Source: Actinotalea soli
GTDB lineage: Bacteria; Actinomycetota; Actinomycetes; Actinomycetales; Cellulomonadaceae
Direction: 5' to 3'
Assembly: GCF_017565425.1 (NCBI RefSeq)
Contig: NZ_JAGEMK010000003.1
Coordinates: forward strand, 124,001-188,000
DNA: 64,000 nucleotides
The notes beneath the pieces were generated by a model. The model was given only the letters and a program-made list of their open reading frames with translations, made no database searches and was not told where the DNA came from. Below, piece by piece: positions 9,933-21,194 of this stretch (position 1 is its first letter; each line of letters begins with the position of its first letter). The position numbers and the translations under genes are program-made.

Positions 9933-10465
9933 GCCACGCCGAGGGGCTCCCGGTCCTGCGCGCGCCGATGCGGTCGCGGCTCGACGAGGTCGATGCGGCG
10001 GCCGCGGTGGAGCGGGCGCTCGCCCTCGGTCTGTGCGGCATCGGCGGGCGTCTCGCGCGGGCCCCCGCCGACCTGGCCGAGGCCTGCGCCCTCGTGGCCG
10101 AGCAGCACGACGAGCGGACGGCGCGGCGGCTCGAGCGCTTCGCGGCGGAGCCCGCGGGGGCCTTCGTGTGGACCCGCACGGGCGAGGGCCTGTTCGCGGT
10201 GGGGAGGCTGACGGGCCCCTGGCGCTACGATGCGTCGGCCGACGCCCGTGCCCTCGACCTGGTGCACGTGCGTGACTGCGCCTGGGCCGAGGCCCTGCTA
10301 CCTGCCGCGCAGACCCCGGCGCCGGTGCTGGCGACCTTCGCCCGGGGCGGGCGCAACCTGCAGCGCGTGCACGACGGCGGCGTCGCGGCAGCCTCCGCCC
10401 GGGCCGTCGAGGCTCAGGATCGGCGCGGGGACCGGCGACGCATGGGCACAGGCTCCTCGAGGTAG
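9929..10465 (+). CDS. conserved hypothetical protein, translationally coupled to the SDR-DUF2867 gene
   Basis: 178-residue cytosolic protein with no signal peptide or membrane segment. It is rich in Ala/Arg, with a helical N-terminal half and a central beta-looking stretch (AFVWTRTGEGLFAVGRLTGP). A conserved-looking block, LDLVHVRDCAWAEALLP...VLATFARGGRNLQRVH, lies at about 110-150. I do not recognise the family. GTG at 9929 overlaps the upstream stop in GTGA. The 3' 52 bases overlap the convergent thioesterase gene, so the last residues may be lineage-specific. Confidence 0.7.
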   Translation: MSHAEGLPVLRAPMRSRLDEVDAAAAVERALALGLCGIGGRLARAPADLAEACALVAEQHDERTARRLERFAAEPAGAFVWTRTGEGLFAVGRLTGPWRYDASADARALDLVHVRDCAWAEALLPAAQTPAPVLATFARGGRNLQRVHDGGVAAASARAVEAQDRRGDRRRMGTGSSR

Positions 10466-10902
10466 GGCTCCCACGCGGCGCGCTCGACCTCGTCGATCCG
10501 GCGCGGGCGTCCGGTGGTGGCGTCGAGCAGCACGAGGGTGGTCGAGGCGTGGACGTAGACGGTGCGGGTCCCCTCGACCTGGGCCGTCACCTGGTAGCAG
10601 ACGTCCAGGCTCGCCCCGCCCAGGTGCCCGATCCACATCTCGACGGTCACCGGGTCGCGTCGGTAGCCGAGCGGGAGCAGGTACTCGATCTCCGACCGGG
10701 CGACGAGGGTGTGGGTCGTGGCCCCCGGGCCGGCGTCGAGTACGGCCGTGGGCCAGAGACCGGCGTCGCGGGCCTCGGCGTGCCGCCAGAAGGCAGCGAT
10801 GCGCGCCTCCTCGAGCAGCCGCAGCACGGCCACGTTGTTGACGTGCCCGTAGGCGTCGAGGTCGGCCCAGCGCACCGCGACGGGGACGTTCAGGCGGCTC
10901 AT
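10414..10902 (-). CDS. hotdog-fold acyl-CoA thioesterase (4HBT/YbgC type)
   Basis: 162 residues, single hotdog domain. WADLDAYGHVNNVAVLRLLEEAR carries the catalytic Asp16 and nearby His20 of 4-hydroxybenzoyl-CoA/YbgC-like thioesterases; EIEYLLPLGYRRDPVTVEMWIGHLGGASLDV is the long central strand region. The ATG at 10902 overlaps the stop of the upstream GTPase gene (ATGA), placing it third in a GTPase-GTPase-thioesterase operon. The substrate cannot be read from sequence. YbgC in proteobacteria is tied to membrane phospholipid metabolism, which could fit membrane-acting GTPase neighbours, but that link is only inference. Confidence 0.88.
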   Translation of the reverse strand: MSRLNVPVAVRWADLDAYGHVNNVAVLRLLEEARIAAFWRHAEARDAGLWPTAVLDAGPGATTHTLVARSEIEYLLPLGYRRDPVTVEMWIGHLGGASLDVCYQVTAQVEGTRTVYVHASTTLVLLDATTGRPRRIDEVERAAWEPYLEEPVPMRRRSPRRS

Positions 10903-12602
10903 CGGGCTCCTCGGCGGGCTGGACGACGGGACGCGCGACGTCCAGGGGCGGCGGCGCGCTGGGCGGCCTCGCGGCACTCGTCGACCTGCGCGAGGACCTG
11001 GGTGACGGGGGCCTGGACGTGGTCGTGGGCCACCGTGGCGATCGCTGCGTGCAGTCGACGGGCGGCACGCCGGGCCCGACGGCGGGCGCCCACCACGGTC
11101 CCGAGCCGGGAGAGGCCCGCGACCACGAGGCCGAGCAGCGCTCCCCCGACGGCGGCGAGGGTGGGCCAGGGCACCTCCCCCCAGCGGGGCGGGTCCGGGA
11201 CGGGGATGCGCAGGGCGTCCAGCCCGGCGAGCCCCGCGAGCCAGAGGCCCCCGAGCACGGCGACCGTGAGCAGCAGCCACTGCAGGGCACCGACCCCCTG
11301 CCACCAGGTGGGGCGTCGGGGGCGGAGCACCTCGGTGCCGGCGACCGCGCGGTCCAGGGCGTCGGGCAGGTCCCCCGCCTCGGCGGCGTGCCGTGCGGCC
11401 AGGGCCCAGGGCTCGGGCACCCCGACCGAGGCGGCATCGACGTAGTCACGGACCGCGGTGCGCGCCCGCGCGGCCTCGGCTGCACCGGTCGGCGGCAGGG
11501 AGGTCCGCCCCAGGTCCGGTCCCTCGACCGGGCGCGACGGGGCCTGGTCTCGCGAGGACCGGGAGCGGCCCAGGTGCAGGCGCCGGAGCGGGTCTGCCCG
11601 GCGGCGCGCCAGCCAGCGCAGCGGCGGCCATCCGGTGGCCAGCCGCCCCTCGAGGAGCCAGGACCCGCGGACCGCCGCGACGACCTGCGGCACCCCCGCG
11701 GCGTGCTCGAGGGAGGCGACGAGCTCGGTCACGGCCGGGGCGGTCGTGGGCCGCGGGTCACCGCAGTGCTCGAGCACGCTGCTGGCCGCGGCGGTCACGT
11801 CGGCCTCGAGGCGCTGCCGGGCGGCCTCGCGGCGCAGCGCTGCCTCGTCGAGCAGGGCCACCAGGTCGGCGACGCCCTCGCCGGTCTGCGCCGAGGTGGT
11901 GAGCACCCTCGCGCTCCCGAGGCCGTCCTCGTCGAGGAGGCGGAGCAGGTCCTGCCGGCAGGCCTCGAGCTCCTCGGCGGCCAGCCGGTCCACCTGGTTG
12001 AGGACCACGACGACGACCGCTGCGTGCCCCGCGAGCCCGCGGAGGTAGCGCTCGTGCACGGCCGCGTCGGCGTACTTCTGCGGGTCGACGACCCACACCA
12101 TGAGGTCCACCAGGGCGACGAGGCGCTCGGCCTCGGTGCGGTGGGCGGCCACGACCGAGTCGTGGTCGGGCAGGTCGAGGACCACGAGCCCGTCGGTCGC
12201 GAGGTCGAGGACTTCGGGCCTGCTGCTGGGTGCACTGGCGCTGGCCGGCGTGCCGTGGTCGGCGCCCGGGCGATCGAGGTGGTGACGGCGCCGCACGCCC
12301 AGCCAGTCGAGCAGGGGCCCGGCGCCCTCCGGACCGCGGACCACGGCGAGGGGCTCGGCCGTCGTGGGGCGCAGCACCCCCACGGGGGCGAGGTCGGCGC
12401 CGGTCACGGCGTTGACCAGGGAGGACTTGCCCGAGCCGGTGGACCCGGCGAAGGCGACGACGGTGTGCTGGTCCGAGAGCCGCATCCGCTGCCCGGCCCG
12501 GGCCTCGACGGCCTGGACCTGCCCGAGGACCTCCACGGGCAGCACCTCGCGACCTGCCCGCACCGCGACGGCGAGGGCGTCGAGCCGCTCGGCGAGGCTC
12601 AC
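10899..12602 (-). CDS. dynamin-like P-loop GTPase with two membrane segments (B-type, first pair)
   Basis: 567 residues. P-loop GSTGSGKS at 53-60; switch-like VLRPTT; G3 position reads DLPDHDS (Asp where dynamins have Gly); LMVWVVDPQKYAD; G4 is a good NQVD, followed by TSAQTGEG (G5-like). After an Arg/Pro-rich linker, two hydrophobic segments (around WLLLTVAVLGGLWLAGLAGL and LAAVGGALLGLVVAGL) suggest membrane anchoring, followed by a basic tail. GTG at 12602 overlaps the stop of the A-type GTPase (GTGA). The ATGA overlap downstream couples it to a thioesterase. A closely related gene is at 17792-19288. Probably a partner of the A-type protein in a membrane-remodelling or surveillance complex (inference). 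Confidence 0.82.
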   Translation of the reverse strand: MSLAERLDALAVAVRAGREVLPVEVLGQVQAVEARAGQRMRLSDQHTVVAFAGSTGSGKSSLVNAVTGADLAPVGVLRPTTAEPLAVVRGPEGAGPLLDWLGVRRRHHLDRPGADHGTPASASAPSSRPEVLDLATDGLVVLDLPDHDSVVAAHRTEAERLVALVDLMVWVVDPQKYADAAVHERYLRGLAGHAAVVVVVLNQVDRLAAEELEACRQDLLRLLDEDGLGSARVLTTSAQTGEGVADLVALLDEAALRREAARQRLEADVTAAASSVLEHCGDPRPTTAPAVTELVASLEHAAGVPQVVAAVRGSWLLEGRLATGWPPLRWLARRRADPLRRLHLGRSRSSRDQAPSRPVEGPDLGRTSLPPTGAAEAARARTAVRDYVDAASVGVPEPWALAARHAAEAGDLPDALDRAVAGTEVLRPRRPTWWQGVGALQWLLLTVAVLGGLWLAGLAGLDALRIPVPDPPRWGEVPWPTLAAVGGALLGLVVAGLSRLGTVVGARRRARRAARRLHAAIATVAHDHVQAPVTQVLAQVDECREAAQRAAAPGRRASRRPARRGAR

Positions 12603-14449
12603 TGCCACAGCCGCCTCCACCACGCCAGCAGGCCACCGGCCTCGGGGTCCTCGACCCGCCCAGGTGCGGCGGGGTCGATCACCGGGCGGCGGGCGGTGCG
12701 CGGCCCGGAGGGGCCGCCGCTGTCGGTGCCGAGGCCCGCGGCACGGGCAGCCTCGGCCAGCTCGTGGGCGGTCGTGCGCAGGGGGTCACCACTCGGACCC
12801 GTGAGGCTCGCGCGCTCGAGGTCGAGGGCCCGGACCCGGGTCGTGAACCTCGCGGCCTCGTCGGCGAGGAGCCGGCCCACCCGGGCGTCGAGGTCCTCGT
12901 GGGCCGTCCGGGTGAGCCGCCGCACGGCGTCGTCGCCGAAGACCGCCTCGAGCAGTCGCTGGCCGAGCACGGCGGCGCCCCCGGCGACCCCGAGCTCGGC
13001 GGCGGTGAGACCGCCGGTCGAGGCGAAGATCGCCACCATGAGTGCCGCACCGAGGCCGTTGACGCCGAAGGACAACGCCCGTGCGGTCACGCGCCGGTCA
13101 GCCCCCTCGGAGGAGACGAGCTCCAGGACGGCCCCCTGCCACGCGCGGACCTCGGTGGAGGTGCGGTCCCGCAGGTCGCTCGACGCGCGGCTCAGGGTGG
13201 GGTCGTCCAGCAGCCGGGTACCGGCCGGGTCGGCTCGCCATGCGGCATGCACCTGCTCGGCCGCCTCCTCGGCGACGTCGACCACGAGGTCGACCAGGCC
13301 GCTGCCGATGGCCTGGGCGACGGGCTCGGGGGCGGGCCTGCCCCGCAGGAAGGCCGTGGCGCGGTCCCGCCAGGAGCTCACCCTCGTCTCGAGGGCCCGC
13401 AGGAGCTCTCCGGTGCCGACGAACTCCTGCCAGCGGGCCAGCACCTCGCCGCGCAGCATGGTGCCGTCCGAGGTCGCCTCGTGGACCTGGGCGTGGGCCC
13501 GCGCGTAGGTGCTGGTGGCGACCTGACCGAGGTGGCTCGCGTGGGCCGCCTGGTCGTCGGCGGCTGCAGCGAGGCCCGGCAGCACGGCGACCACGTCGGC
13601 CACCGCCCCGCTCACGGTGCGGCGCAGCACCTCGTCACGGGCCTCGGCGTCCTCGGCGATCTCGCGGAGCCATCGGTCCAGGTCGGCGACGGCCGTCGGC
13701 GGGAGCAGGCCCTCGGCGAGGGTCTGCTCGTCGACCGCGGCGAGGTGGGCGCTGACCAGGCCTCGCTCGTCGAGCATCCGAGCGAGGTCGGCGACGACCG
13801 CCTGGTGCGCCCCGGGCTCGATGCGGTTGAGCACCACGGTCACGGCGGCTCGGCGCCGGGCGGCGGCGGCCAGCAGGTCCCAGGGCACGGCGTCGGCGTA
13901 ACGGGCGGCCGTCGTGACGAAGACCCAGAGGTCGGCCGCCCCGAGGAGCTCCTCACCGAGCCGACGGTTCGCCTCGACCACGGAGTCGATGTCGGGGGCG
14001 TCGAGGACGGCCAGGCCGCGCGGGATGCCGGGGTGCCCCACGAGGCGCAGCGCGTGACCGTGGGCCTCGGCCCCGGTGACGCGGGGCAGGCCCGGCAGGA
14101 TCCGGTCGCTCGTGAACCAGGCGGCGTCCGTCGGGTGGTGCACGAGGACCGGTGACCGGGTGGTGGGCCGCAGGACTCCCGCGGGGGTCACCGGGGTGCC
14201 GACGAGGCTGTTGACCAGGGTGGACTTGCCGGCCCCGGTCGAGCCACCCACGACGGCGAGGAGCGGCGCCCCGGCCTGCCGCACCCGGGGCAGCAGGTAG
14301 TCGTCCAGATGGTCGGCGAGCCGGGCGCCCTCACGCCGCGCGAGGTCGGCACCGGTCAGCTCGAGGGGCAGCCGCAGGTCGCCGAGGGCGGTGCGCACCC
14401 CGGCGAGGGCCGAGACCAGGCGCTGGGCCTGCTCGGGACTCGCGACCAT
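12599..14449 (-). CDS. dynamin-like P-loop GTPase (A-type, first pair)
   Basis: 616 residues. P-loop GGSTGAGKST at 68-77, VLRPTTRSPVLVHHP, G3 position DAPDIDSV, DLWVFVTTAARYADAVPW. The G4 position reads NRIE, not NKxD. The C-terminal half is helical, with a hydrophobic patch near 470-500 (GLGAALMVAIFASTGGLTAAE). The start ATG at 14449 has GAGGAGG upstream; longer readings run into the ettA end and are Pro/Arg-rich. It is the first gene of the operon A-B-thioesterase. It is a paralogue of 19285-20934, with which it shares the same motif variants. Confidence 0.82.
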   Translation of the reverse strand: MVASPEQAQRLVSALAGVRTALGDLRLPLELTGADLARREGARLADHLDDYLLPRVRQAGAPLLAVVGGSTGAGKSTLVNSLVGTPVTPAGVLRPTTRSPVLVHHPTDAAWFTSDRILPGLPRVTGAEAHGHALRLVGHPGIPRGLAVLDAPDIDSVVEANRRLGEELLGAADLWVFVTTAARYADAVPWDLLAAAARRRAAVTVVLNRIEPGAHQAVVADLARMLDERGLVSAHLAAVDEQTLAEGLLPPTAVADLDRWLREIAEDAEARDEVLRRTVSGAVADVVAVLPGLAAAADDQAAHASHLGQVATSTYARAHAQVHEATSDGTMLRGEVLARWQEFVGTGELLRALETRVSSWRDRATAFLRGRPAPEPVAQAIGSGLVDLVVDVAEEAAEQVHAAWRADPAGTRLLDDPTLSRASSDLRDRTSTEVRAWQGAVLELVSSEGADRRVTARALSFGVNGLGAALMVAIFASTGGLTAAELGVAGGAAVLGQRLLEAVFGDDAVRRLTRTAHEDLDARVGRLLADEAARFTTRVRALDLERASLTGPSGDPLRTTAHELAEAARAAGLGTDSGGPSGPRTARRPVIDPAAPGRVEDPEAGGLLAWWRRLWQ

Positions 14450-14485
14450 GCCGCCTCCTCGTCGGTGCCCGCCGGTCCGCGCCAG

Positions 14486-14524
14486 GCTCCCGGCCGGGGC
14501 CTGGGTCGGGACCCGGCCGGGAGC
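14486..14524 (-). terminator. strong GC hairpin after ettA
   Basis: A perfect 13-bp stem pairs GCTCCCGGCCGGG with CCCGGCCGGGAGC around a 13-nt loop. It begins six bases past the ettA stop codon and lies 36 bases upstream of the next gene's start, so it separates ettA from the GTPase operon. No U-tract follows. Confidence 0.7.
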
Positions 14525-14529
14525 AGGCG

Positions 14530-16212
<1,683 letters not shown>

Positions 16213-16272
16213 GATCGGGTCTGCTCCAAGCGTCGGACGGGCGGCGCAGCTGCGCCTGGACCACCCGTCAGC

Positions 16273-16818
16273 CTACGGCGTCAGGGCCGCCACGTCCTCG
16301 GACGTCCGCGCCTCGTCCTGCTCGGCCGGCACCTCCCACGGGTCGACCTCGCCCGCGCCGTCCTCCGTGCGGCTGCGCGCGAGCTCGTCGTCCTCGGGCG
16401 GCCCGGCGTCCTCGGTGCCGGTCGTGCCGTCCGTCGTCGCGCCCGCAGAGCCGCTCGTGTAGGTGCGCCGGGTGAACTCCGAGCGCCCTCGGGTGAGGTC
16501 GTGGCCGACCGCAGTGATCTCGAGGGTCAGGCCGGTGCGCGGGCCGTTCTCCCCGATCCACTCCTCGGTGCGCAGCTTGCCGTGCACCACGACGGGGTCG
16601 CCCTTGTGCACCGAGGCCGCGACGTTGAGGGCCACGTCCCGGAACGCCTTGGCCGTGAACCACTCGGTGCGACCGTCGGTCCACGTCCCCTGCCTGCTGT
16701 CGAACCACCGCGGGGTGGTCGCGACGCGGAAGCTCGTGAAGGGCACCCCGTCCCCGACCACCTCGCGCGGGGTCGACGCCGCCCACCCGACCACCGTGAC
16801 CATCAGCTCGTTCGCCAT
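16273..16818 (-). CDS. ssb: single-stranded DNA-binding protein (divergent actinobacterial SSB paralogue)
   Basis: 181 residues. OB-fold in the first ~110 (MVTVVGWAASTPREVV, FRVATTPRWFD, AKAFRDVALNVAASVHKGDPVVVHGKL). A long acidic, disordered tail with Thr/Glu/Asp follows. The tail ends EDVAALTP, not the DDDIPF-type tip that recruits repair proteins in the housekeeping SSB. It therefore looks like the second SSB of actinobacteria (SsbB-like, used in special states such as competence or chromosome segregation in Streptomyces); the assignment is by resemblance only. Confidence 0.88.
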   Translation of the reverse strand: MANELMVTVVGWAASTPREVVGDGVPFTSFRVATTPRWFDSRQGTWTDGRTEWFTAKAFRDVALNVAASVHKGDPVVVHGKLRTEEWIGENGPRTGLTLEITAVGHDLTRGRSEFTRRTYTSGSAGATTDGTTGTEDAGPPEDDELARSRTEDGAGEVDPWEVPAEQDEARTSEDVAALTP

Positions 16819-16953
16819 GTCCGTCTCCGTCCGTCCCGAGCCGGCCTCTCCGGCTCTGCGACGAGCCTCGGCTCCCGGGACGGGGCACGACGGACGGGTC
16901 CGGCCACCCTGGGGACGGGCCTGCCCGGGTCAGCCTGTGGACATCGGCGCCGG

Positions 16954-16959
16954 TAGCGT
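16954..16959 (+). promoter_or_regulatory. -10 hexamer of TSUP gene
   Basis: TAGCGT, seven bases before the GTG at 16967; this spacing picks 16967 over the nearby in-frame GTG at 16958, which overlaps the hexamer. Confidence 0.5.
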
Positions 16960-16966
16960 GCCCCAC

Positions 16967-17767
16967 GTGCCAGACACACCGGACCAGGCTGCTCCTGCGG
17001 CCCGCCCTCCCCTGCCCGTGCTGCGCCTGGCCCTCGTCGGGGTGGTCGGCGGGCTGCTGTCGGGGCTCTTCGGGGTGGGCGGCGGCATCCTCATGGTTCC
17101 CCTGCTCATCGGGCTCGCCCACATGGATCAGCGCCGGGCGGCCGCGACCTCGTTGGTGGCGATCCTGCCCACGGCCGTGGTGGGGAGCATCACCTACGGG
17201 CTCAACGGCGAGGTCGACCTGGTCGCGGGCCTGCTGGTGGCCCTCGGCGGGGTGGTCGGGGCGAAGGTCGGCACGCTGCTGCTGCGCCGTCTCCCTCTGG
17301 GCTGGCTGCGCTGGATGTTCGTCGCACTGCTCGTCGTCGTCGCGGTGCAGCTGGTCCTGGTGGTGCCGAGCCGCGGTGCGGAGATCGCCATCACGCCGTG
17401 GGTCGGCGTGGCGATGGTCCTGGTCGGCGTGCTCGTGGGCATCACGGCCGGGCTCTTCGGCATCGGGGGCGGGGTCATCACCGTCCCAGCGCTCATCGTG
17501 CTGTTCGGCGCGGGTGACCTGGTGGCCAAGGGGACGTCCCTGCTCGTCATCATCCCCACCGCCGTGGTCGGCACGTGGAGCAACCTGCGGGGCGGTCTGG
17601 TCGACCTCCGTGCGGGGGCGGTCGTCGGCCTGACGGCGACCCTCACCTCGTTCGGTGGCGTCGCCCTGGCCTTCATCATCCCCGCCCAGGTGTCGAGCGT
17701 GCTGTTCGCGATCCTCGTGCTGGGCTCGGCGGTCCAGCTCGCGATCCGGGCGTACCGGCTGCGCTGA
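16967..17767 (+). CDS. TSUP-family (TauE/SafE) anion permease
   Basis: Membrane transporter of 266 residues with about eight hydrophobic segments. It shows the internal repeat typical of the TauE/SafE family: GLLSGLFGVGGGILMVPLL (about 25-43) and GITAGLFGIGGGVITVPAL (about 157-175). The family exports sulfite, sulfoacetate or other small anions; the substrate here is unknown and no sulfur genes are near. It is monocistronic on the plus strand between ssb and the second GTPase pair. Confidence 0.9.
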   Translation: MPDTPDQAAPAARPPLPVLRLALVGVVGGLLSGLFGVGGGILMVPLLIGLAHMDQRRAAATSLVAILPTAVVGSITYGLNGEVDLVAGLLVALGGVVGAKVGTLLLRRLPLGWLRWMFVALLVVVAVQLVLVVPSRGAEIAITPWVGVAMVLVGVLVGITAGLFGIGGGVITVPALIVLFGAGDLVAKGTSLLVIIPTAVVGTWSNLRGGLVDLRAGAVVGLTATLTSFGGVALAFIIPAQVSSVLFAILVLGSAVQLAIRAYRLR

Positions 17768-17791
17768 GCAGCACCCGCAGAGGGCAGAACC

Positions 17792-19288
17792 TCAGACGGA
17801 CGCGACCTCACGCACGGCGCGGTGGTCGGCCAGCACGACGATGCTCGGCCGGGCGAGGCGGGTCTCGACCACCTCGGCGAGAGCAGCCCGGGAGGCCTCG
17901 GCGAACTGCTCCGAGCGACGCCGTCCGGCGCCGCGCTCCGCCCGCGCGGCCAGGCCCCAGGCACCGGCAGCCAGCAGGAGGCCGGCACCCCCGGCCACCG
18001 CGGCGAGGGTCGCGGTGTCCGTCCACCCCTGCGCCCCGGCGACCGCGCCGACGACCACCCCGGCGACGACGAGAGCAGCGAGCCCGACGAGCACGCCGAG
18101 GGTGCGCCACACCGAGGCGGCCCGGGACCGGACCGGTTCGGCGACGACCTCAGCAACGGCGGCCCCCACGGCCGAGGTCAGCTCGGTGAGGGGTGCGACC
18201 TGCTCGTCGAGGCGCTCTCGCCAGGGCTCGGGCAGCCCATGCCCGACCCGTTCGAGCCAGGTCCGGCGGACGAGCTCGACGTGGTCGCCCTGCGCCGGCC
18301 CCGCCGCGACGCGTCGGCTGCTCCGCCCGGCGTCCCGTGCGGCGTCGATCGCCCCCGGCAGCCCGACCGCGTAGGCCAGCGCGTCGGTCGCGGCCACGCG
18401 CGGCAGGGCGTCCGCGTCGAGCTCCTCGGTCCCCACGGCCCGGCGCAGCTCCCGGGCGGCGTCGTCGAGCTCGGAGGCGGCCCGCACCTCGGCGATCCCG
18501 CGCCGCTCGACCGCATCCGCGAGGACCCCGCGCAGCACGGGCAGGCCGACACCGGTCCGGGCTGAGACCGCGTGCACGCCGACGCCCTCGAGGCCGTCCT
18601 CGCGCAGCAGCCGGTCGACGTCACGCATGAGGGCTGCCTGGGCGTCGACGGGGACGGTGTCGATCTGGTTGAGCACCACGAGCATCGAGGCCTCGTGCCC
18701 CACGAGGTGGCGCAGGTAGCCGGTGTGCAGGGCGTCGTCGGCGTACTTCTGGGGGTCCACGACCCAGACCAGCAGGTCGACCTGCGGAAGCAGACGGTCC
18801 ACGACGGCGCGGTGCTCGGCCTCGATCGAGTCGTGGTCGGGCAGGTCGAGGAGCACGAGCCCGCGCAGGTCCGCCTGGGTGTCACCGTCCAGGGCGCTCT
18901 CCCGCTCGATGCGGCGGTCCGTGGAGACCCCGAGCCAGTCGAGCAGCGGGGTGGCGTCCTGGGCCCACACGCAGGCCGTGACCTGCGAGGTCGTCGGACG
19001 GCGGACGCCCACGTCGGCGAAGTCGAGCCGTGCCAGGGCGTTGAACAGGCTCGACTTGCCCGAGCCGGTCCCCCCGACCAGGGCCACGACCGTGCGGTCC
19101 ACACCGAGGGCGAGCCGGCCGCGCACCTCGGTCAGGGTGCGGCGCACGCGGGCGGTCGCCTCGTCGGGCATCGCCAGCAGCGCCCGCTCGAGGGCGACCT
19201 CGATGCGGTCGACGCGGTCGAGCAGCGCTGAGGTCCGCTCGCCGCTCACCACGAGGGTTCCCTGGTCGGCGAGGTTCTTCTCGGTCAT
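17792..19288 (-). CDS. dynamin-like P-loop GTPase with two membrane segments (B-type, second pair)
   Basis: 498 residues, paralogue of the gene at 10899-12602. GGTGSGKSS at 72-80, DLPDHDSIEAEHR, LLVWVVDPQKYAD, and G4 NQID. The C-terminal region holds two hydrophobic segments (GVLVGLAALVVAGVVVGAVAG and LAAVAGGAGLLLAAGAWGLAA), then a basic RRRSEQF tail. ATG at 19288 overlaps the stop of the A-type partner (ATGA). It lacks the long Arg/Pro linker of its paralogue. Shared WVVDPQKYAD and LLDWLGV motifs, not usual in other GTPases, mark the family. Confidence 0.82.
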   Translation of the reverse strand: MTEKNLADQGTLVVSGERTSALLDRVDRIEVALERALLAMPDEATARVRRTLTEVRGRLALGVDRTVVALVGGTGSGKSSLFNALARLDFADVGVRRPTTSQVTACVWAQDATPLLDWLGVSTDRRIERESALDGDTQADLRGLVLLDLPDHDSIEAEHRAVVDRLLPQVDLLVWVVDPQKYADDALHTGYLRHLVGHEASMLVVLNQIDTVPVDAQAALMRDVDRLLREDGLEGVGVHAVSARTGVGLPVLRGVLADAVERRGIAEVRAASELDDAARELRRAVGTEELDADALPRVAATDALAYAVGLPGAIDAARDAGRSSRRVAAGPAQGDHVELVRRTWLERVGHGLPEPWRERLDEQVAPLTELTSAVGAAVAEVVAEPVRSRAASVWRTLGVLVGLAALVVAGVVVGAVAGAQGWTDTATLAAVAGGAGLLLAAGAWGLAARAERGAGRRRSEQFAEASRAALAEVVETRLARPSIVVLADHRAVREVASV

Positions 19289-20934
19289 GTGAGCCCCTTG
19301 AGGACGGCGAGCCGCAGCCGCAGGAGGGAGGCGGCGTCGTCGGCAAGATCGGGGTCGACGAGCGCGGTGAGGGCAGGCTGCGCGCCGGCCCGGCACTGCT
19401 CGACGGCCCGTGCGGTCAGGTCGCGGCGCAGGGTCGCGGCGGCCTCGCGCGCCGGGTCACGGCCGACGGCGCCCTCGAGGACGATCCGGGCCGAGCCCAG
19501 CCCCGCGGCGGCCGCGGCGACGAGCGCACCGGGGCCGTCCGGCCCCGTCGCACGGACCAGGCGGGCGAGTCGGCGGGCCGCGGCCTTGTCGGGCTCGGCG
19601 AGGGCCGTGGCGACGGTGCGGGCGGTCTCGAGCCACCCCGCGGCGGCTGCGTCCGCCGAGGTCATGGTCGTCGCGGTGTCAGGGGTGGTGCTGGTGCCGC
19701 CCACCACGAGGTCCAGGACCCCGCGGGCACCGGGCTGGGTCGTCGTCTCGAGGGCGGTGACGACGGCCAGCTCGGCCCGGCGTCGGCACCCGGCGAGGGC
19801 CATCCCCGCGGACCGTCGCAGCTCGAGGGTGATGGACGCGAGGGCCTCGACGCGCTCGTCGCGACCACGCCGTGAGGTCCAGCCGGTCAGCGGCCCGCCT
19901 CCGCTCGCGAGGGATGCCCAGGTGCCGCGCACCGGGCCGTCGGCCACTCCTGCGGTCTCGACCTCGGCACGCTCGGCGACCGAGCCGGCGGCCTGCTCGA
20001 TCAGTGCGGTCAACGCGGTCCGGGCGTCGACCTGCGCCTGCACGGCCTCGGCGAGCCCGGTGACCCACGGGCGCAGCGCCTGCAGCGAACCGCGCTGGGT
20101 GCGGGCGATGACCGAGCGGGCGCGGTCCGGCCCGGCCACCATGGCGAGCCACCGGCCGATCGGCGCGACGACCTTCGCGTCGAGCATGCCCTCGTGGGGA
20201 CCGGCGTCGGGGACGAGGAACAGCGGGACGGCCGCCATGCCTCGCGCGCGCAGCCTCCCCATGAGGTCCCCGCGGACGGCCACCAGGGCGTCGTCGGGCA
20301 CGCGGTTGAGGACCATGGCCATCGAGGTGCCGCGCTCGGTGGCCCGGTCGAGCACCTCCCAGGGCAGGGCGTCGCCGTAGCGCGCCGCCGTGGTGACGAA
20401 GAGCCACAGGTCCGCGGCCTCGAGCAGGCGGTGGGCGGTGCTGCGGTTGGAGGTGAGCAGCGAGTCCAGGTCGGGGGCGTCGACCAGGGCGATGCCCCGC
20501 GGCACGGCCCCGTGCGGCACCACGTCGACGATCTCCAGGAGGGGGTGCTCGGCGAGCAGGGCGGCGTCGTCGGGGTGGTGGGCCAGGACGGGGCGTCGCG
20601 TGGTGGGGCGGAGCACCCCGGCGGCGCTCACCTCGGTCCGCAGCACCGAGTTGACCAGGGTGGACTTGCCGGCGCCCGTCGAGCCGGCGACCACCACGAT
20701 CGCCGGGGCGGAGAGCTCGCGCAGGCGGGGCAGCAGGTGGTCGTCGAGCTGGTCGAGCAGCCGACGGCGCTGGTCCTCGGCCTCGGTCACGCCCTCGAGG
20801 GGCAGCGGGAAACGGGTCGCGGCGACGTCACGGCGCAGGTCCGTGACGGCGTCGAGCAGGGAGGCCTGGGCCCGGGGTCGTCCGGTGTCACGCTGGCCCC
20901 CGGCTGAGGCCTCGGTCGCGGGGTACGTGATCAC
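19285..20934 (-). CDS. dynamin-like P-loop GTPase (A-type, second pair)
   Basis: 549 residues, paralogue of 12599-14449. GSTGAGKST at 84-92, VLRPTTRRPVLAHHPDDAALL, DAPDLDSLLTSNR, DLWLFVTTAARYGDALPW. The G4 position reads NRVP, so the usual nucleotide-specificity Asp is absent. The rest is helical and Ala-rich without a clear membrane span. GTG at 20934 has GGAGG about eight bases upstream; an ATG at 20970 would add 12 residues. Followed by its B-type partner with a 4-base overlap. Confidence 0.82.
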   Translation of the reverse strand: MITYPATEASAGGQRDTGRPRAQASLLDAVTDLRRDVAATRFPLPLEGVTEAEDQRRRLLDQLDDHLLPRLRELSAPAIVVVAGSTGAGKSTLVNSVLRTEVSAAGVLRPTTRRPVLAHHPDDAALLAEHPLLEIVDVVPHGAVPRGIALVDAPDLDSLLTSNRSTAHRLLEAADLWLFVTTAARYGDALPWEVLDRATERGTSMAMVLNRVPDDALVAVRGDLMGRLRARGMAAVPLFLVPDAGPHEGMLDAKVVAPIGRWLAMVAGPDRARSVIARTQRGSLQALRPWVTGLAEAVQAQVDARTALTALIEQAAGSVAERAEVETAGVADGPVRGTWASLASGGGPLTGWTSRRGRDERVEALASITLELRRSAGMALAGCRRRAELAVVTALETTTQPGARGVLDLVVGGTSTTPDTATTMTSADAAAAGWLETARTVATALAEPDKAAARRLARLVRATGPDGPGALVAAAAAGLGSARIVLEGAVGRDPAREAAATLRRDLTARAVEQCRAGAQPALTALVDPDLADDAASLLRLRLAVLKGLT

Positions 20935-21110: not shown

Positions 21111-21183
21111 GCCCCCGTAGCTCAGTGGATAGAGCATCGGACTTCTAATCCGCAGGTCGCAGGTTCGAATCCTGCCGGGGGCG
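21111..21183 (+). tRNA. tRNA-Arg (anticodon TCT)
   Basis: 73-base cloverleaf. Acceptor GCCCCCG pairs with CGGGGGC, then discriminator G; anticodon loop CTTCTAA gives TCT; T-arm GCAGGTTCGAATCCTGC. CCA is not encoded. Confidence 0.95.
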
Positions 21184-21194
21184 CCGAGGCCTGA

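What the first reader, a model, noticed from the sequence alone, without database searches (positions are those of the whole stretch)
10899..20934. Two tandem pairs of paralogous dynamin-like GTPases bracketing ettA, ssb and a TSUP permease
Four GTPase genes fall into two types. A-type (12599-14449, 19285-20934) shares VTTAARYxDA(V/L)PW and GSTGAGKSTLVNS. B-type (10899-12602, 17792-19288) shares WVVDPQKYAD, LLDWLGV and two C-terminal membrane spans. Each A gene is followed by its B gene with a 4-base stop/start overlap. The same A-B module therefore occurs twice on the same strand, 3.3 kb apart. This is direct from sequence; that A and B form an obligate hetero-complex at the membrane, as known for paired bacterial dynamins (for example DynA/DynB of Streptomyces), is inference. 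Possible roles are membrane repair, division or phage defence.
Basis: partly seen in the sequence, partly recalled or inferred. Interest (0 to 1): 0.7.

Follow-up and report, generated by a model that had tools for sequence, protein, structure and literature searches.

The report
Doubled DynA/DynB dynamin gene pair
Two diverged copies of a bacterial dynamin gene pair, of the kind that helps Streptomyces build its division septum, lie on either side of ssb and ettA in an actinobacterium; the pair itself is known, but keeping two of them side by side looks like a family-specific elaboration.

Summary
A1 (12599-14449), B1 (10899-12602), A2 (19285-20934) and B2 (17792-19288), all minus strand, form two A-B pairs with 4-base overlaps; A1/A2 and B1/B2 are each 39% identical. 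AlphaFold models of A1 and B1 (pLDDT 84, 87) match dynamin-superfamily structures best. Most B-types have two C-terminal hydrophobic spans. A-B-ssb-ettA recurs across Actinomycetia, including a chaplin-rich, Streptomyces-like genus, where it is the only tandem pair shared by three genomes scanned. So these are most likely DynA/DynB-family genes. The window's family (Cellulomonadaceae) usually has A2-B2-ssb-ettA-A1-B1. Trees show two old lineages that moved as A+B units. Pair 2 sits at the ssb site but has diverged more; pair 1, beside ettA, resembles the class-wide pair more. DxPD replaces the dynamin DxPG in 151 of 153 A and B proteins, and A-types lack a fixed NKxD. Most likely role: a GTPase complex at the division septum; how two pairs share the work is unknown. 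The TSUP gene is a local insertion. Phage defence has no good support. New variant of a known kind.

The parts
19285..20934 (-). A2: dynamin-like GTPase (DynA-like, pair 2); in its group most copies lack the strong C-terminal hydrophobic segment of A1
17792..19288 (-). B2: dynamin-like GTPase with C-terminal membrane spans (DynB-like, pair 2); ATGA overlap with A2
16967..17767 (+). TSUP/TauE permease on the opposite strand; local insertion, not found in the 17 other family loci (two truncated); start codon is my reading
16273..16818 (-). ssb: the lower-scoring of the genome's two SSB genes
14530..16212 (-). ettA, energy-dependent translational throttle ABC-F protein
   Evidence: NF008775, 935.7 bits, cut-off 599
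12599..14449 (-). A1: dynamin-like GTPase (DynA-like, pair 1) with helical stalk and one C-terminal hydrophobic segment
10899..12602 (-). B1: dynamin-like GTPase with two C-terminal hydrophobic spans (DynB-like, pair 1); GTGA overlap with A1
10414..10902 (-). 4HBT-type thioesterase, ATGA overlap with B1; a thioesterase lies downstream of ettA in many relatives, so pair 1 sits between the two

Best explanation
Both pairs are members of the actinobacterial DynA/DynB family. Each A is a peripheral or soluble dynamin-like GTPase and each B is a partner held in the cell membrane by a two-span hairpin in its helical part. By homology to Streptomyces, an A-B complex gathers at the division site, binds divisome proteins and the membrane, and stabilises the FtsZ ring and membrane during septum closure, with nucleotide-driven contact between G domains changing the complex. 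The window's family keeps two such modules: pair 2 at the ssb-ettA site used across the class, and pair 1 between ettA and the thioesterase. Shown here: gene order, pairing, predicted fold of A1 and B1, hydrophobic spans, kinship, two lineages. Inferred: physical A-B complex, divisome role, orthology to the named S. venezuelae genes, and division of labour between pairs (most A2 copies, like 3 of 4 Streptomyces-like A, lack the strong hydrophobic segment that A1 keeps).
For: Fold: A1 model pLDDT 84.3, B1 model 86.6; best Foldseek PDB matches are BDLP 2j69 (E 8e-10) for A1 and Cj-DLP 5owv (E 4.7e-8) for B1. Gene order: B downstream of A on the same strand for 75 of 76 A genes in 61 loci (the miss, L079, has B next to A). 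ssb within 4 kb downstream of B: 16 of 17 family pair 2, 3 of 4 g42, 20 of 36 other A1-type, 2 of 3 other A2-type. g42 is Streptomyces-like: 6-11 chaplin matches, mostly of high score, and 3-7 SsgA-family matches in 4 of 4 genomes. In 3 of 3 g42 genomes scanned with Dynamin_N, the A-B-ssb site has both genes over the cut-off and is the only tandem pair common to the three (my reading of the positions). dynA and dynB are vnz_12110 and vnz_12105; DynB has two membrane segments; here 70 of 76 B proteins scored have two strong hydrophobic C-terminal segments. Streptomyces DynA and DynB interact and belong to the divisome (passages).
Against: The S. venezuelae proteins could not be fetched, so identity with DynA/DynB rests on locus, topology and genome markers. 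In the g42 genomes the A match covered only about the first 390 of 655 profile positions, so the C-terminal half of A is weakly conserved between the two. No experiment in Cellulomonadaceae. G021 (another genus of the family) and G005 (same genus, 660 contigs) have no A gene; 77 of 148 class genomes gave no A match at 1e-10. In 11 of 36 other A1-type genes, and in 14 of 14 loci of other classes, no ettA of the window's kind was found near the pair. Mirror-tree correlations do not single out cognate pairs: A1-B2 0.80, A1-B1 0.81, A2-B2 0.78. Whole-chain TM-scores to the PDB matches are low (about 0.2-0.5). By sequence profile, B is nearer Era/Der-type GTPases and no dynamin appears among the listed PDB matches.
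Confidence: 0.66

Rival explanations
1. General membrane repair or stress-response dynamins (as proposed for B. subtilis DynA or mycobacterial IniA) rather than divisome parts; two pairs give two stress inputs.
For: Same fold class as IniA and BDLP; one off-site pair lies beside a Band_7 (flotillin-type) gene; the off-site loci sampled show no division-gene context.
Against: The relatives with a published role that match in locus and topology are the divisome pair DynA/DynB.
Confidence: 0.2
2. Anti-phage defence dynamins (Eleos/LeoA-LeoBC-like).
For: PADLOC LeoBC (2.7e-9, 34.7 bits) and LeoA (1.3e-8) match B2, and weakly B1 (4e-4, 5e-4). One off-site neighbour has a weak HNH match (8e-6).
Against: Matches cover the GTPase part only; none for A1 at 0.01; recurrent site with ssb-ettA across a class; of 20 neighbour ORFs of six off-site loci four have no family at 1e-5 and the rest, apart from the HNH match, are not of a kind I know as defence genes.
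Confidence: 0.05
3. Pair 2 is a decaying duplicate with no separate role.
For: Pair 2 evolves faster: mean Kimura distances A 0.70, B 0.75 against 0.53 and 0.61 for pair 1 over 15 genomes; most A2 lack the hydrophobic segment.
Against: G1 and G3 are kept in 17 of 17 family A2 and 18 of 18 family B2; pair 2 is one old group over four families; G018 has a pair 2 and no second A match in its draft genome.
Confidence: 0.09

Closest known systems
Streptomyces DynA/DynB
   Same: Adjacent A then B genes; B with two membrane spans; A-B-ssb-ettA order in Streptomyces-like genomes.
   Different: One such pair in the g42 genomes, two of different lineages here. B to ettA is 3.5-4.0 kb in three g42 loci and 1.6 kb from B2 here.
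Campylobacter Cj-DLP1/Cj-DLP2
   Same: Tandem genes for two different dynamin-like proteins; top structure match of B1.
   Different: The Cj complex is cytosolic (PMC6104087 passage), B here has membrane spans; not among the listed sequence-profile matches.
Mycobacterial IniA
   Same: Actinobacterial dynamin-like protein; close structure match of A1 and B1.
   Different: About 15% identity in the structure alignments; 5 of 5 listed f19 genomes lack the A gene (that f19 is mycobacterial is my guess from genome size).
Cyanobacterial BDLP
   Same: Best structure match of A1 (E 8e-10).
   Different: 13% identity; A-B pairing and two-span topology not tested for it here.

Membership tests
Actinobacterial DynA/DynB family | Two adjacent genes, A then B, both dynamin-like | tested here: met
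Actinobacterial DynA/DynB family | DynB has two membrane segments | tested here: met
   (hydropathy); DynB statement from a passage of PMC8748795
Actinobacterial DynA/DynB family | Sequence homology to the S. venezuelae pair | tested here: inconclusive
   A and B homologues in 4 of 4 g42 loci, g42 Streptomyces-like; vnz sequences themselves not available
Actinobacterial DynA/DynB family | Septal localisation, divisome interactions, Z-ring stabilisation | not testable with these tools
   needs microscopy and deletion
Dynamin superfamily | GTPase domain followed by long helical stalk of dynamin type | tested here: met
   (A1 and B1 only, predicted models)
Dynamin superfamily | Canonical G3 motif DxPG (motif recalled) | tested here: not met
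   DxPD in 74 of 76 A and 77 of 77 B, DxPG in none; 2 short A proteins (L097, L098) have neither. So I file these in the DynA/DynB family, dynamin-like by fold, not as canonical dynamins.
Dynamin superfamily | Canonical G4 (T/N)KxD (motif recalled) | tested here: inconclusive
   B: NQxD or NHxD; A: [NDS]R followed by no fixed D
Dynamin superfamily | Membrane-binding element in the stalk | tested here: inconclusive
   B: two spans; A1: one hydrophobic segment; A2: mostly none; binding not tested
Eleos (LeoA/LeoBC) defence | Full-length match to LeoA and LeoBC | tested here: not met
   partial, GTPase region only

The most novel reading that the evidence does not exclude
The Cellulomonadaceae divisome uses a four-protein dynamin assembly: two old, distinct A-B modules that cross-interact (A1 with B2 as well as B1), with a non-standard nucleotide site (DxPD throughout, no fixed NKxD Asp in A), where pair 2 is a membrane-span module with a paddle-less A that regulates the paddle-bearing pair 1.
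Probability: 0.18. Interest if true: 0.6.

Novelty: new variant of a known kind. Interest (0 to 1): 0.4.

Why it matters
Paired dynamin-like GTPases are bacterial counterparts of mitofusins and dynamins, and why they come in pairs is open. A family with two distinct pairs in one locus offers a natural test: whether partners are exclusive, whether one pair can be lost, and which part (the A hydrophobic segment, the B spans) carries the function. The recurrent link to a second SSB and to EttA is a further lead to how division, DNA and translation may be coupled in actinobacteria.

Tried and rejected
Pfam Dynamin_N as proof of dynamin kinship: rejected, because the model rings in 13 of 14 (E 0.01) and 14 of 14 (E 0.1) control genomes and on other P-loop genes of this genome. 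PDB by sequence profile: A gave 23 matches up to E 0.1, mostly P-loop stretches; B gave 100 (60 shown), led by Era/Der/HflX/FeoB-type GTPases; no bacterial or eukaryotic dynamin among those shown. Recent duplication inside the family: held-together tree 31 log units worse, p-AU 0.041, a borderline rejection. Placement of pair 2: the A tree and the full concatenated tree put it deep, with long branches near it; in the B tree it joins the ssb-site pairs of other families of the order (95), and so it does in the concatenated tree after I removed ten long or distant rows (98.8). The concatenated set itself (69 rows) leaves out the rows on a drop list of 19 names, mostly near-copies and fragments, rows whose partner was missing, and three of 14 outgroup pairs. 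Mirror-tree test for exclusive pairing: no clear answer. Promoter and terminator scan: none found, few expected. Neighbours of off-site pairs: no shared theme in 20 ORFs of six loci. Literature: Schlimpert 2017 is not held. Searches SCO2683+ssbB, Cellulomonas+dynamin (two unrelated papers by their listing) and dynamin-like+Actinobacteria+gene duplication+DynB (none) found no paper on a doubled pair; the library is partial, so this is weak. Other searches. That ssbB lies next to dynB in named Streptomyces, and that SsbB acts in sporulation, I recall; no call showed it.
Full report
What is there. The A-B junctions are GTGA and ATGA overlaps; B1 and the thioesterase also overlap by ATGA. A1/A2 and B1/B2 are 39% identical. 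A TauE/TSUP permease lies on the plus strand between ssb and B2 and was not found in the 17 other family loci, two of which are cut short.

Where the window comes from. It lies in a 3.63 Mb, 32-contig assembly. Five same-genus genomes have contigs of the same length as named records of Actinotalea or Cellulomonas (1287891, 684601, 359767, 93575 and 1161159 bases), so I take family f1 as Cellulomonadaceae.

Are they dynamins? Pfam Dynamin_N matches of the four proteins are short, at the P-loop (in the genome search the B1 match spans the model), and the model rings in nearly all control genomes. Sequence profiles find no dynamin among the PDB matches shown. So sequence alone does not decide. 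AlphaFold models from 24-row alignments are confident: mean pLDDT 84.3 for A1 and 86.6 for B1, each with a G domain followed by long helices. Foldseek against the PDB lists 50 rows for each. For A1 I recognise all 50 as dynamin-superfamily proteins (counting EHD4), led by BDLP, E 8.0e-10. For B1 I recognise 47 of 50; the others are Toc34 (two rows) and MnmE. Whole-chain TM-scores are mostly 0.2-0.5. A2 and B2 were not modelled.

Motifs. Over 76 A and 77 B proteins taken from 61 loci, G3 is DxPDxDS in 74 A and 77 B, and DxPG in none; the two A without it (L097, L098) are short, 313-314 residues. D thus stands where dynamins, as I recall, have G. The P-loop GxTGxGKS[ST] was found in 73 of 76 A and 75 of 77 B. 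G4 is NQxD or NHxD in B and [NDS]R without a fixed Asp in A; the window has NRIE in A1 and NRVP in A2. Counting 19-residue segments of mean hydropathy above 1.6 in the C-terminal part: two in 16/16 family B1, 15/17 family B2, 3/4 g42 B, 34/36 other B1 and 2/3 other B2 (70 of 76); at least one in 16/16 family A1 and 32/34 other A1, but in 7/17 family A2, 1/4 g42 A and 0/3 other A2.

Distribution. With an A profile, 15 of 18 genus genomes (own included) have two A matches of over 400 bits; G005 has none, G009 and G013 one, all three being drafts of 430-840 contigs. In other genera of the family 5 of 7 genomes have two of over 300 bits, G018 one (pair 2 type), G021 none; in other families of the order 2 of 14 have two of over 250 bits (my counts from the rows). 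In the class 71 of 148 genomes have an A match at 1e-10 and in the phylum sample 25 of 149 at 1e-15; these two searches scored only the best 8-9 candidates per genome. Some large genomes of family f29 also hold two, unlinked, pairs.

Gene order. Loci were fetched because they held an A match. Of 76 A genes, 75 have B downstream on the same strand; for the miss (L079) merged open frames hid it from the script and one search shows B next to A. Family pair 2 is followed by ssb within 4 kb in 16 of 17 (the other, L119, is at a contig end), and family A1 has ettA upstream in 16 of 16. Outside the family, ssb follows B in 20 of 36 and ettA lies within 9 kb downstream in 25 of 36 A1-type genes; in g42 both in 3 of 4, the fourth being L079. 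In L125 (family) and L075 (order; its pair 1 is elsewhere, L074) ettA and the thioesterase are neighbours without pair 1, which fits pair 1 having been placed at that junction. In 14 of 14 loci of other classes A and B were side by side, and no ssb and no strong ettA match was found near them.

Link to DynA/DynB. Family f31/g42 has genomes of 6.1-9.9 Mb. In four of them there are 6-11 chaplin matches (nearly all of 60-104 bits) and 3-7 SsgA-family matches; of the five other genomes searched, four have no chaplin and one (G050) seven weak ones (24-37 bits) in one frame, and SsgA matches number 0 or 1, one in the window's own genome. I take g42 as Streptomyces or close kin. In three g42 genomes Dynamin_N over its cut-off marks both genes of the A-B-ssb site; one of them (G081) also has a run of three strong dynamin genes. 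Papers, passages only: dynA and dynB are vnz_12110 and vnz_12105 (PMC6428758); DynB has two membrane segments, SepX binds DynB but not DynA, and sepX-dynB co-occurrence extends to unicellular actinobacteria (PMC8748795); the two proteins interact in vivo and belong to the sporulation divisome (PMC6104087; PMC7985256); tandem DynA and DynB are mentioned in the IniA paper (PMC6715688). Schlimpert 2017 itself was not seen.

History of the two pairs. The A and B trees each make family pair 1 one group and family pair 2, with copies from f3, f9 and f12, another, so A and B moved as units. The B tree (95) and the concatenated tree without ten long or distant rows (98.8) place pair 2 with the ssb-site pairs of other families of the order; the A tree and the full concatenated tree place it deep instead. 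Pair 1 groups with off-site pairs of the order and with families f32 and f36. A duplication inside the family is disfavoured, p-AU 0.041. I read this as an old second lineage, by early duplication or transfer, which in this family came to lie between ettA and the thioesterase. Pair 2 evolves faster.

The ssb here is the lower-scoring of the genome's two SSB genes (54 against 107 bits); one g42 genome shows the same split, 65 against 110. Any role of it here is inference.

Mechanism and limits. The best-supported account is a DynA/DynB-type GTPase complex at the division membrane, in two diverged versions. Pair exclusivity is open: residual mirror-tree correlations over 15 genomes are 0.81 (A1-B1), 0.80 (A1-B2), 0.78 (A2-B2), 0.74 (A1-A2), 0.66 (B1-A2) and 0.65 (B1-B2).

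Noticed in passing
window 16967-17767 (+): A TauE/TSUP permease lies between ssb and B2 on the opposite strand in this genome and in none of the 17 other family loci examined.
   Followed up: partly
L085:4302-5888: An off-site A-B pair of family f29 lies tail to tail with a Band_7/SPFH (flotillin-type) gene.
   Followed up: no
G081:C1:6512468-6516813: One Streptomyces-like genome has three consecutive strong Dynamin_N matches (89-108 bits), apart from the A-B-ssb pair.
   Followed up: no
L097:7215-8159 and L098:7338-8279: Two genomes of family f32 have a short A gene of about 313 residues without the DxPDxDS motif, still followed by B, ssb and ettA.
   Followed up: no
window 16273-16818 (-): The ssb next to the pairs is the second SSB gene; an A-B-ssb-ettA neighbourhood recurs across the class.
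   Followed up: partly
window 21111-21185 (+): A tRNA-Arg (tct) gene lies just upstream of A2.
   Followed up: no
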